Assembly: GCA_028819295.1 (NCBI GenBank)
Contig: JAPPMA010000019.1
Coordinates: 1-64,000 of the forward strand
Direction: 5' to 3'
Source of the DNA: a bacterium
GTDB taxonomy: Bacteria > Actinomycetota > Acidimicrobiia > Acidimicrobiales > Bin134
Length of the DNA: 64,000 bases
The notes beneath the pieces were generated by a model. It searched no databases and was not told the DNA's origin. It was given only the letters and a program-made list of their open reading frames with translations. Of this stretch, positions 44,323 to 47,730 are shown piece after piece. Within the stretch, counting starts at the first letter, position 1, and each line of letters starts with the position of its first letter. The position numbers and the translations under genes are program-made.

Positions 44323-45183
44323 ATGAACACGATCAAAACAATCCTGTTGCTGGTGCTGATGGCAGCGCTTTTCGTGGCCGTCGGCGGGCTGCTGGGCGGG
44401 AGCGGCGGACTGGCCATCGGCATTGTCATCGCGGTGATCGTGGTGGGCGGTTCGTACTGGTTCAGCGACAAGCTGGCCATCGCCTCGGCCCGGGCCGTGC
44501 CGGTCACCCCCGAGCAACTTCCGCAGTACCACGCCATCATGGAAGAGCTCACCGCCAAAGCCCAGATTCCCATGCCCAAGCTGTACGTGAGCCCCAATCC
44601 CCAGCCCAACGCCTTCGCCACCGGCCGCAATCCCAAGCACGCCGCGGTCGCGGTTACCGAGGGACTCATCAACCACCTGACGTGGGATGAGATCCGAGGG
44701 GTGCTGGCCCACGAACTGGCCCACATCCGCAACCGCGACATCCTCATCGGATCGGTGGCTGCGGCCATCGCCATGGCCATCACCTTCGCCTCTCGCATCG
44801 CGGTGTGGGGCATGATCTTATTCGGCGGACGAGACCGCGACCGGGGCGCGGGCGACCTGATTGGAGTGCTGGTGGCCGCCATCTTGGCCCCCATTGCCGC
44901 CAGTCTGATCCAGATGGCCATCAGCCGCACCCGGGAATACCAGGCCGACGCCTCCGCGGCTCGGCTCATCGGGGATGGCGAACCGTTGGCCCGAGCATTG
45001 GAGAAGCTGAACGCCGCCTCCCAGCGCATCCCGGTCAACGTTCCGGTGGAGCAGGCGTCGCACTACATCGTGAACCCGCTCACCGGCCGGGCCAGCTTCC
45101 GCAGCCTGTTCAGCACCCACCCCCCCGCCGAGGAGCGCATCCGCCGCCTCCGCTCCGGCGAGTGGGTCCCCCAGGCGTACTAA
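44323..45183 (+). CDS. htpX: HtpX-type membrane zinc metalloprotease
   Basis: A 286-aa M48-family membrane protease for quality control of membrane proteins. The zinc motif HELAH is at 130-134 and the third ligand Glu205 is in [14 protein letters not shown]. Hydrophobic helices lie at 6-45, 142-165 and 178-200. The C-terminal [13 protein letters not shown] is the normal family end. ATG at 44323 with GGGAG 11 bases upstream; an in-frame GTG at 44311 lacks spacing for a ribosome site. Confidence 0.93.
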
Positions 45184-45223
45184 TCGCCGCCCTGCCCTCC
45201 AGAAAACCCCAAAGAATCAGCGC

Positions 45224-45316
45224 GACGGCGTTGTGTTAGGATTTTTCTGAGAGAAAGCCCTAACAATTCCCTCTGACGGCGTTGTGTTAGGATTTTTCTG
45301 AGAGAAAACCCTAACA
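45224..45316. repeat. Two 42-bp tandem repeats, each a two-part hairpin
   Basis: Copies at 45224-45265 and 45275-45316 (period 51 bases) differ at one position. Each folds by pairing TGTTAGG with CCTAACA (45234-45240/45259-45265 and 45285-45291/45310-45316) around an inner TTTTCT-GAG-AGAAAR stem. The only difference is G in copy 1 and A in copy 2, opposite a T: in RNA this keeps U-G or U-A pairing. A weaker third right half (AGAAAACCCC, 45201-45210) precedes them with the same 23-base distance to the next GACGGCG. Copy 2 ends 11 bases before the Schlafen-like GTG start. Confidence 0.8.
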
Positions 45317-45327
45317 GGGATGGACTC

Positions 45328-47070
45328 GTGGACCGCACAACCTTCACCTACTTGCCACAACCGCAACGCCGTGAAGAGGTCGAGCGCGTTCTGCGAGTCT
45401 TGAGCCAAGGCGGCACCTCTGCCGACGAGTTGGAATCAGCCATCGTCGACATCAAGGAGGAGGCTGGTCGCCGAGCTGCCGACGGATCGATCCTGCCCGG
45501 CTCTCCGCACAACGACGAGGCGGCAGAGAGGCTGGCTGAAGCAGCGGCCTGCATGGCCAACTCGGCTGGAGGGGGAGCGCTGGTAGTTGGCGTGGACGAC
45601 AAGACTGGCCGGATCATCGGAGCAGAGACCGAGCCGCAGTGGTTGAGGGGCCGGATATACGACCTAACCGAGCGAAAGCTGGCGGTGCAGATCGACCGAG
45701 TCGCGGCCGGCGGGGCAAAGCTGCTGATCATCGAAGTGCCCCAAGCTCTAGAGCCAGTGCCGTACAAGGGAAAATACCAGCACCGGGTAGATGCTAGGTG
45801 CGTGCCAGCCACGAGGACCGAACTCATGGGAGCGCTGTTCGCCAACCTTGCCGCTGACCCTTCGAGCATGCCGTCGCAGACCCTTATCAGATCGATAGCA
45901 CCGTCTGCGATGGAGACGCTTCGAGGCCATCTGTCAGACGATGATTCCCCTCGGGCGGAACTTCCCACACGCGACCTGTTGGGCAGGCTCGGGCTGGTTG
46001 CAGACGACGGCGAGCATCTGAACAAGGCAGGCGAGATGTTACTCATGGCGCGTCGGCAGCCAGCCATCGACTACTCGTACCGGCAAGTTCCCGGTGGGCC
46101 TTCCATCGTGCGGATCATGGAGGGTGGCCGCTCGCTGTTGGAAGAGGTTCTGACAGTCGAAGCTCGGGCCAACGATCACAATTTCGTGACGGAGGTCACC
46201 ATCGGGCTTCAGGTCCACAAGGTGTGGGCCATCCCGCGGCGGTCGCTGCGGGAGGCGTTGTTGAATGCGGTATGCCACAGAGAGTGGAGCCTGCCGGGCC
46301 CCACGGTAGTGGAGCACATCGGAAATCACCTTCGCGTCACCTCGCCCGGCGGGCTCATCGGCGGCGTCACCGAAAACAACATCATTACGCACCCCTCCGT
46401 ACCCCGCTATCGAACGATCATGAACGCATTGAGGTTGATCGGCCTTGTGGAGCAGGAGGGCGTCGGAGTGGACATGATGTTCGCGGAGATGGTCCGAATC
46501 GGCAGCCGGCCGCCTGCCATCACATCCCTGCCCGACCCTGCCGTCTGCATAGACCTCTACGGTCAACCGGTGAACGAAAACTGGTACAAGCTGTTTGCCG
46601 ACTTGGAGCCACCGCGTGGCCGCGACGATGTAGACGCCGCTCTGCTCGTCTGGCGGGGGGCGCAGCCGCAATCGCCATTCCTCACCAGTGAATCCTGTGC
46701 TCCGTTACTGCAACGCACTCGAGGAGACACTGAAGCAGCGCTGAAGCGGGCGGCCGAGTACAGGCTGGCCACTCCGGGGTCGCCCCTGCTTGCACCCATA
46801 GCCGTGCCTTATGACACTCCTGCTGCCTGGCAACTCAGCCCACAGACAAAGGCAGCCCTCGGCTTGCGACCCAGTACTGAGTCCGATCAATGGGTACTGG
46901 ATTGGGCCCGCGAGCGGGGGCGGATTTCCTCTGGCGAATATCGCGAGGTGACCGGGGTATCGCCCAGCACCGCAACCAACCGGCTGAAAGAGATGGCGCA
47001 ACAAGGCCAGCTCGTGCCGAGCTCAAACGTAGGCCGGGGAAGGGGGTTCCACTACCTGCCTGCTCAATGA
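45328..47070 (+). CDS. Schlafen/AlbA-domain ATP-binding regulator
   Basis: A 580-aa protein. Residues about 38-165 resemble the AlbA_2/Schlafen nucleic-acid-binding domain (AACMANSAGGGALVVGVDDKTG, LLIIEVPQALEPVPYKG, HRVDARCVPATRTE). Residues 300-365 are a GHKL-type ATPase segment (SLREALLNAVCHREW, then VTSPGGLIGGVTENN). The C-terminal 60 residues form a winged helix (YREVTGVSPSTATNRLKEM). This architecture is usually annotated as an ATP-dependent transcriptional regulator; some relatives act in phage defence. The tandem hairpins directly upstream are a possible autoregulatory site. GTG start with AGGGA eight bases before. Confidence 0.82.
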   Translation: MDRTTFTYLPQPQRREEVERVLRVLSQGGTSADELESAIVDIKEEAGRRAADGSILPGSPHNDEAAERLAEAAACMANSAGGGALVVGVDDKTGRIIGAETEPQWLRGRIYDLTERKLAVQIDRVAAGGAKLLIIEVPQALEPVPYKGKYQHRVDARCVPATRTELMGALFANLAADPSSMPSQTLIRSIAPSAMETLRGHLSDDDSPRAELPTRDLLGRLGLVADDGEHLNKAGEMLLMARRQPAIDYSYRQVPGGPSIVRIMEGGRSLLEEVLTVEARANDHNFVTEVTIGLQVHKVWAIPRRSLREALLNAVCHREWSLPGPTVVEHIGNHLRVTSPGGLIGGVTENNIITHPSVPRYRTIMNALRLIGLVEQEGVGVDMMFAEMVRIGSRPPAITSLPDPAVCIDLYGQPVNENWYKLFADLEPPRGRDDVDAALLVWRGAQPQSPFLTSESCAPLLQRTRGDTEAALKRAAEYRLATPGSPLLAPIAVPYDTPAAWQLSPQTKAALGLRPSTESDQWVLDWARERGRISSGEYREVTGVSPSTATNRLKEMAQQGQLVPSSNVGRGRGFHYLPAQ

Positions 47071-47077
47071 AAACCGG

Positions 47078-47566
47078 TCAGTCTCGGAAGTTGCCGAACT
47101 GTAAGGGGATGGCGAAGTCGGCCTCTTTGAGGGCGGCGATCACATCTTGAAGCATGTCCCGCTTCTTGCCGCTCACCCGCAGCTGACCACCCTGGGTTTG
47201 CGATGAGACCCCCTTCATGCCCAGGTTCTTGATGAACTTGTTCAGCTCCCGGGCTTTGTCGGCCGAGATTCCCGCAGCCAGCGCCGCCTCCTGGCGAACC
47301 GTCCCGCCAGCCGCGTCGGCCACCGGCCCGTAGGTCACGCCCTTGAGAGACACCTTGCGCCGCACCAGCTTCTCCTCCAGCACCTGGCGGGCCGCGGCCA
47401 GCCGGTCCTCGTTGGACGATCGCAGCGTGATGACCCCCTCGCCCAGCGCCACTTCGCTGCCGGTGTTCTTGAAGTCGTAGCGGCTGTGGATCTCCCGAGC
47501 CGCCTGGTCCACGGCATTGCGGACCTCCTGCATGTCGAGCTCAGAAGAAACATCAAATGTCGGCAT
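47078..47566 (-). CDS. YajQ-family nucleotide-binding protein
   Basis: A 162-aa protein of the UPF0234/YajQ family: MPTFDVSSELDMQEVRNAVD, YDFKNTGSEVALGEGVITL, EDRLAAARQVLEEKL, KFIKNLGMKGVSSQTQGG and the conserved end ALKEADFAIPLQFGNFRD. Members bind RNA or cyclic di-GMP in a few species. It starts at the ATG at 47566; a GTG one codon earlier is possible. Convergent with the Schlafen-like gene, seven bases apart. Confidence 0.93.
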   Translation of the reverse strand: MPTFDVSSELDMQEVRNAVDQAAREIHSRYDFKNTGSEVALGEGVITLRSSNEDRLAAARQVLEEKLVRRKVSLKGVTYGPVADAAGGTVRQEAALAAGISADKARELNKFIKNLGMKGVSSQTQGGQLRVSGKKRDMLQDVIAALKEADFAIPLQFGNFRD

Positions 47567-47645: not shown

Positions 47646-47728
47646 GGGTCGGTGCCCGAGCGGCCAAAGGGAACGGGCTGTAAACCCGTCGGCATTCGCC
47701 TTCGGAGGTTCAAATCCTCCCCGGCCCA
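47646..47728 (+). tRNA. tRNA-Tyr (anticodon GTA)
   Basis: An 83-base class II tRNA with a seven-pair acceptor stem (GGGTCGG/CCGGCCC, one T-G pair), anticodon loop CTGTAAA on an ACGGG/CCCGT stem, long variable arm, T loop TTCAAAT and discriminator A. CCA is not encoded. Its 3' 39 bases plus two downstream bases recur at 50146-50186. Confidence 0.97.
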
Positions 47729-47730
47729 CT
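47690..47730. repeat. 41-bp direct repeat, proximal copy (tRNA-Tyr 3' end)
   Basis: Identical at all 41 positions to 50146-50186. This copy is the 3' part of the intact tRNA-Tyr plus two bases. Location at a tRNA 3' end is the classic attachment-site position, so it is a candidate att site. Confidence 0.85.

What the first reader, a model, noticed from the sequence alone, without database searches (positions are those of the whole stretch)
45201..45330. Tandem hairpin repeats directly before a Schlafen/AlbA-type gene
Two 42-bp units plus a decayed half unit form nested hairpins. Their single difference (G to A) keeps U-G or U-A pairing, suggesting selection on an RNA fold. The last hairpin ends 11 bases before the start codon, over the ribosome site. 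A self-binding nucleic-acid sensor is an attractive idea.
Basis: partly seen in the sequence, partly recalled or inferred. Interest (0 to 1): 0.6.

Follow-up and report, generated by a model that had tools for sequence, protein, structure and literature searches.

The report
Self-control DNA switches of bacterial Schlafens
The repeated hairpins are really an evenly spaced row of DNA binding sites at the start of a bacterial Schlafen-like (possible anti-phage) gene; the same spacing, with changing site letters, precedes many relatives across actinobacteria, which suggests that each of these proteins controls its own gene by binding there.

Summary
Two 42-bp units, differing at one base, lie at 45224-45265 and 45275-45316, with a period of 51 bp. 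An upstream half-unit lies at 45203-45212.

The RNA-fold reading is not supported. The array is five 10-bp half-sites, R-L-R-L-R, at fixed offsets (R +33 L +18 R). The 'decayed' half-unit is a conserved half-site. Close orthologues keep the half-sites (92-96% identical) while the spacers drift (39-69%). Distant homologues have different half-sites in the same lattice. In 35 non-redundant test loci, 20 have their best repeat period at 50-54 bp (2.2 expected) and 19 have strong palindromes (0.85 expected).

Mismatches show no G-U preference. In one Micrococcales branch the distal arm carries a -10 box 7 nt before the start codon. That fits leaderless transcription, so no hairpin would be in that mRNA. 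Exact palindromes occur nowhere else in the genome. Paralogues in one genome have different half-sites, so the site follows the protein.

Best explanation: an autoregulatory operator array bound by the gene's own AlbA_2-GHKL-winged-helix protein (bacterial Schlafen, PDB 3LMM family). No binding was measured. Three genomes carry the array before a different gene, which is unexplained. No prior description was found in the open papers searched.

The parts
45203..45212 (-). Half-site R0 (AAAACCCCAA), the unpartnered 5' half-site
   Evidence: position conserved in orthologues
45236..45245 (+). Half-site L1 (TTAGGATTTT)
45254..45263 (-). Half-site R1 (AAAGCCCTAA); with L1 forms the first narrow palindrome
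45287..45296 (+). Half-site L2 (TTAGGATTTT); contains TAGGAT (45288-45293), a possible -10 element
   Evidence: the -10 role is inferred only. No sigma-70 consensus promoter was found, and TANNNT is not significantly commoner in L than R arms
45305..45314 (-). Half-site R2 (AAAACCCTAA); with L2 forms the second narrow palindrome
45203..45314 (.). Whole operator array R0-L1-R1-L2-R2 (offsets 33, 18, 33, 18; period 51 bp)
   Evidence: the exact palindrome pattern occurs nowhere else in this genome
45316..45324 (+). Probable ribosome-binding region (AGGGATGGA)
   Evidence: Sequence, inference
45328..47070 (+). Gene for a 580-aa AlbA_2 (60-161) - GHKL ATPase (329-399) - winged-helix (about 515-578) protein, bacterial Schlafen / DIP2311 (3LMM) family
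   Evidence: Pfam, PDB sequence match 3LMM E 1.8e-63, AlphaFold model and fold search

Best explanation
The feature is a double-stranded DNA operator array, not an RNA device. Five 10-bp half-sites (R-L-R-L-R) lie at offsets of 33 and 18 bp, so the array repeats every 51 bp, about five helical turns, and equivalent sites face the same side of the DNA. The most likely reader is the gene's own product, a bacterial Schlafen-type protein (AlbA_2 nuclease-like domain, GHKL ATPase, C-terminal winged helix). Its oligomers would sit side by side on the array, covering the promoter and limiting their own expression; a change in the GHKL/AlbA_2 part, or drawing the protein away, would release the promoter. 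Shown here: the array, its lattice, its conservation, its divergence together with the protein, and (for exact palindromes in three genomes) its restriction to this one locus. Inferred: binding by the product, repression, and the triggering signal.
For: Close orthologues in the genus carry the array in the same register. Half-sites are 92-96% identical between genomes, spacers 39-69%. In 75 homologue upstreams the best repeat lag is 51 in 14, 54 in 10 and 52 in 7; lags 50-54 hold 36 versus 4.65 expected. In the 35 non-redundant test loci this is 20 versus 2.2, and automated palindromes number 19 versus 0.85. Distant homologues use other half-sites, such as CTTAACTTTTT, CTTATACTTA, GTTACACTTT and TGTTAGATTAG, in a lattice of about R +33 L +18-19 R in the 51-52-bp group and more loosely spaced in the 54-bp group (17 hand-chosen loci). 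Paralogues in one genome differ in half-sites: L007/L026, L044/L070, L040/L063. So the site follows the protein rather than the genome, as expected if each protein reads its own. A search of 7 genomes (fixed spacer, up to 3 mismatches) hit only this locus (the fixed 8-bp spacer misses the 9-bp sites of two of them). A variable-spacer exact search of 3 genomes did the same. The protein has a C-terminal winged helix, a GHKL N-box invariant in 51 of 51, and Schlafen-like acidic residues E36 51/51, D/E41 51/51, D91 43/51. A predicted -10 box in the distal palindrome arm, 7 nt before the start codon (L081, L082, L084, L090, L092), places the array on a promoter.
Against: No binding or expression data. 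Half-site distance correlates with every domain of the protein about equally, so co-evolution cannot be pinned on the winged helix. Three closely related genomes (G003, G013, G020) carry a perfect array before a different, unrelated gene pair, although they lack a close orthologue. Either the array is a recent left-over or something else reads it; their divergence is too small to decide (0 of 50 half-site and 2 of 62 spacer columns vary). Some distant homologues show no clear array (L058, L072, L110). The DIP2311-like_C Pfam hit is just below its cut-off (25.1 versus 27 bits). TANNNT is not significantly commoner in the L than the R arm.
Confidence: 0.72

Rival explanations
1. RNA leader: the transcript folds into tandem hairpins over the ribosome site, and the protein (or another factor) binds the RNA to control translation.
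For: Stable predicted fold, z -3.3; the array ends close to the start codon in many loci; AlbA_2 domains bind nucleic acid (own knowledge).
Against: Arm mismatches are A-C as often as G-U (16 versus 13). Unpaired half-sites are conserved. Some arrays are clear direct repeats with poor palindromes (L051, L063). In the TAAANT-N7-RTG branch the mRNA would not contain the hairpin. No Rfam match.
Confidence: 0.08
2. The array is an operator read by an unrelated host regulator that controls whatever cargo sits between htpX and yajQ.
For: G003, G013 and G020 have the same array before a different gene pair; the htpX-yajQ gap is a cargo site, empty in five genomes checked.
Against: Across distant genomes, arrays with quite different half-sites precede members of this gene family whatever the neighbours. 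Paralogues in one genome have different half-sites. Exact palindromes of this type occur at no second locus in three genomes.
Confidence: 0.12
3. Mobile-element end, repeat family or recombination site (MITE, REP, cassette-exchange site) that happens to sit before the gene.
For: Local tandem amplification of the 50-52-bp unit is seen (L037, L040, L044, L063); gene content after the array is exchangeable in the genus.
Against: No second copy by exact palindrome pattern in three genomes, nor by a fixed-spacer pattern with up to 3 mismatches in seven; array and gene stay together while the site sequence changes completely between clades.
Confidence: 0.05

Closest known systems
DIP2311 of Corynebacterium diphtheriae, PDB 3LMM (structural-genomics entry, no function assigned)
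   Same: Same full-length fold and family: phmmer E 1.8e-63, Foldseek E 1e-44, VIA-align Z 35.9 over 477 residues (rmsd 11.1, so domains are placed differently). Corynebacterium homologues L094 and L108 also have dyads before the start.
   Different: No operator or DNA-binding work on it was found in the library searched.
Bacterial Schlafen RNases with minimal histidine-kinase (GHKL) and wHTH domains, listed as BREX-linked effectors (PMC12839542) and reported as anti-phage in a cited preprint (Taboada et al. 2025, doi 10.1101/2025.07.24.666596, known only from the citation)
   Same: Same domain order, AlbA_2 - GHKL - wHTH; conserved Schlafen-type acidic residues.
   Different: No BREX neighbours at this locus: the gene stands alone between htpX and yajQ. 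I could not read whether the preprint covers regulation.
TrlG of Photorhabdus (AlbA_2 + HATPase_c_4; PMC7554251)
   Same: Same two Pfam domains; the paper ties mutations in it to growth at the higher temperature, so the gene can restrict growth.
   Different: Different phylum; no operator array is described in the passage read.
CapK/CapS control of bacterial immune operons (PMC13373217)
   Same: Works alike: GHKL protein, winged helix, promoter-overlapping wide and narrow palindromes of one half-site, cooperative binding, immune-gene control.
   Different: Two proteins (GHKL kinase plus STAS-wHTH repressor) against one here; half-site TTAA with 1- or 10-bp gaps, not a 51-bp lattice.

Membership tests
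Bacterial Schlafen (AlbA_2-GHKL-wHTH; DIP2311 family) | Schlafen AlbA_2 domain | tested here: met
   PF04326 51.8 bits, cut-off 25.3; fold match to SLFN11/13/14 N-terminal domains
Bacterial Schlafen (AlbA_2-GHKL-wHTH; DIP2311 family) | GHKL ATPase-like domain with N-box | tested here: met
   PF13749 41.6 bits, cut-off 26; E309 and N313 invariant in 51 of 51
Bacterial Schlafen (AlbA_2-GHKL-wHTH; DIP2311 family) | C-terminal winged helix | tested here: met
   Three helices then two strands in the model at 520-578, pLDDT about 90; full-length 3LMM match. Pfam PF22168 is slightly below cut-off
Bacterial Schlafen (AlbA_2-GHKL-wHTH; DIP2311 family) | Three acidic residues of the Schlafen RNase site | tested here: met
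   E36 51/51, D/E41 51/51, D91 43/51; equivalence to SLFN13 E205/E210/D248 is from my own knowledge and spacing, not from a residue-level superposition
Bacterial Schlafen (AlbA_2-GHKL-wHTH; DIP2311 family) | RNase or anti-phage activity | not testable with these tools
   Needs biochemistry and phage assays
BREX-associated Schlafen | BREX core genes next to it | tested here: not met
   Flanked by htpX (M48 peptidase) and yajQ (DUF520); no conserved neighbours in relatives
Autoregulatory DNA operator array | Repeated dyad half-sites at fixed spacing before the regulator's own gene, conserved over the spacers | tested here: met
Autoregulatory DNA operator array | Site follows the regulator, not the genome | tested here: met
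   Paralogues in one genome have different half-sites. Unexplained arrays before another gene in G003, G013, G020
Autoregulatory DNA operator array | Binding by the product and repression of the promoter | not testable with these tools
   No experimental data
Structured RNA leader / riboswitch | Match to a described RNA family | tested here: not met
   No Rfam hit up to E = 1
Structured RNA leader / riboswitch | RNA-specific pair changes (G-U favoured over A-C) | tested here: not met
   13 G-U versus 16 A-C
CapK/CapS | Separate STAS-wHTH repressor phosphorylated by a GHKL kinase | tested here: not met
   The gene stands alone, no STAS domain
Dispersed repeat (REP, MITE) | Copies elsewhere in the genome | tested here: not met
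   Only this locus in the pattern searches

The most novel reading that the evidence does not exclude
A family-wide operator code: bacterial Schlafens assemble as an oligomer whose geometry (R-33-L-18-R, every 51-54 bp) has been kept across actinobacterial classes while the letters read have changed freely. One protein would be both effector nuclease and its own repressor, parked on its array in uninfected cells and freed, with derepression, when ATP state or nucleic acid changes.
Probability: 0.25. Interest if true: 0.8.

Novelty: new variant of a known kind. Interest (0 to 1): 0.55.

Why it matters
Schlafens are antiviral RNases in animals and are now proposed as phage-defence effectors in bacteria; how the bacterial ones are kept safe until needed appears open. 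This gives a concrete, cheap-to-test answer for a large actinobacterial branch: a predicted self-operator with exact half-sites and spacing, present upstream of cultured genera too (Jiangella, Micrococcus, Cryobacterium, Rothia). It also offers many natural protein-site pairs with a shared geometry and different letters, useful for working out winged-helix specificity.

Tried and rejected
RNA hairpin selection: tested by mismatch type, unpaired half-sites, leaderless promoters and Rfam; rejected as the main explanation. Specific co-evolution of half-site with winged helix: partial Mantel tests gave similar values for all domains, so not shown. L arm as -10 box in the 51-bp group: TANNNT in 30 of 36 L arms against 26 of 36 R arms, p 0.22, inconclusive. 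Sigma-70 consensus scan: none found. Defence-island context: no conserved neighbour; 102 Pfam families in 95 neighbouring ORFs, few defence hits. Tandem Repeats Finder gave no row for the window array. Phage and plasmid collections: only distant or partial matches. Papers: no description of these arrays found; subscription papers and bioRxiv were not searchable.

Full report
WHAT IS THERE. Two 42-bp units (45224-45265, 45275-45316) differ at one base and repeat at 51 bp. An additional right arm lies at 45203-45212, and the last unit ends 11 nt before the GTG start at 45328. In half-site terms (L = TTAGGRTTTT, R = its reverse complement) the order is R0 L1 R1 L2 R2, with starts at 45203, 45236, 45254, 45287 and 45305, that is offsets of 33, 18, 33 and 18. 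The exact palindrome pattern is found at no other place in this genome.

THE GENE. 45328-47070 encodes 580 aa with AlbA_2 and HATPase_c_4 domains. It matches the crystal structure 3LMM (DIP2311, C. diphtheriae) over most of its length. An AlphaFold model has mean pLDDT 89.7 and ends in a winged helix. The AlbA_2 part matches Schlafen 11, 13 and 14 and the SAMD9 tRNase domain; the middle matches histidine-kinase ATPase domains. In 51 homologues E36 and the GHKL N-box residues are invariant, position 41 is always D or E, and D91 is kept in 43. [quoted passage not shown]

CONSERVATION IN THE GENUS. Orthologues of 69-90% protein identity in six further genomes of the genus carry the array, always between htpX and the gene (coordinates corrected for strand). 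Genomes G005 and G006 have an additional unit. Half-sites are 92-96% identical between genomes and spacers 39-69%. Five genomes without the gene have no array and an empty htpX-yajQ gap.

CONSERVATION BEYOND THE GENUS. 80 loci from one genome scan gave 75 upstream regions. An automated search for the best direct-repeat period gave 51 (14 loci), 54 (10) and 52 (7); periods 50-54 hold 36 of 75 against 4.65 in dinucleotide shuffles. After removing loci related to those from which the 51-bp idea came, and clustering at 70% identity, 20 of 35 remain against 2.2 expected (maximum 6 in 60 shuffles), and 19 of 35 have a strong narrow palindrome in the last 120 nt against 0.85 expected. Extending the band to 53-54 was decided after seeing the data; 51-52 alone hold 9 of 35. 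The half-site letters differ widely between clades but keep the lattice: in 17 representatives chosen by hand, about R +33 L +18 or +19 R in the 51-52-bp group, and somewhat looser offsets in the 53-54-bp group. Within palindromes the two arms agree at 84% of core positions against 60% when arms are dealt between loci; these arms were picked partly for their symmetry, so that figure is biased upwards, unlike.

DNA OR RNA. Four observations favour DNA. (1) Half-sites without a partner are conserved. (2) Mismatches between arms are A-C as often as G-U. (3) Some arrays are strong direct repeats with weak palindromes (L051, L063). (4) In Brevibacterium, Isoptericola, Promicromonosporaceae and Microbacteriaceae loci (L081, L082, L084, L090, L092) TAAANT lies in the distal arm exactly 7 nt before the start codon, the usual layout for leaderless transcripts in actinobacteria (own knowledge), so the palindrome would not be transcribed. 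For the window gene the analogous -10 would be TAGGAT at 45288-45293; this is inferred only, and the L/R comparison was not significant.

WHO READS IT. The protein has a DNA-binding-type domain. Sites track the protein: paralogues in one genome have different half-sites (L007/L026, L044/L070, L040/L063), while orthologues in different genomes share theirs. Neighbours are not conserved (95 neighbouring ORFs, 102 families, none in more than 4). Site distance correlates with all protein domains alike, so the winged helix is not singled out. The best reading is self-control, probably repression, since the array covers the likely promoter region and ends next to the ribosome site. Side-by-side binding on one DNA face is inferred from the roughly five-turn period.

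WHAT DOES NOT FIT. In G003, G013 and G020 the array is perfect but is followed by a small ORF and a 186-aa protein of no Pfam family. These genomes have only a 40%-identical paralogue elsewhere, with other half-sites. In G010 the array is followed by what looks like only the last codons of the Schlafen gene before yajQ, near a contig end. So the gap behaves as a cargo site and arrays can outlive the gene; the three genomes are too similar to say whether the orphan array is under selection.

NOVELTY. Palindromic self-operators are common in bacteria, and immune-gene control by wide and narrow palindromes is known for CapK/CapS (PMC13373217). A conserved operator lattice with freely changing half-sites for bacterial Schlafens was not found in the papers that could be searched; unavailable preprints may cover it.

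Noticed in passing
L151:260-1176 (G013), with equivalents in G003 and G020: A perfect R-L-R-L-R array of the window type sits after htpX but before an 81-aa ORF and a 186-aa protein of no Pfam family; the usual Schlafen gene is absent.
   Followed up: partly
window 45181-47100: The htpX-yajQ gap is a cargo site in this genus: Schlafen gene plus array, other cargo plus array, a remnant (G010), or empty.
   Followed up: partly
window 47646-47729: A tRNA-Tyr gene follows yajQ, so the cargo gap lies near a tRNA gene.
   Followed up: no
L017/L028 (G012) and G015:C1:2713900-2714671: Homologues of the gene appear broken into pieces (frame changes, a stop), suggesting decay of the family in some genomes.
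   Followed up: no
L037, L040, L044, L063 upstream regions: The 50-52-bp unit is tandemly amplified almost without change (4.5 units in L044), suggesting array growth by slippage or unequal exchange.
   Followed up: no
L090, L092, L096, L112 upstream regions: In the 54-bp group the narrow palindrome often has a G-rich spacer (such as TTAGAGGGGGGTCTAA); its meaning is unknown.
   Followed up: no
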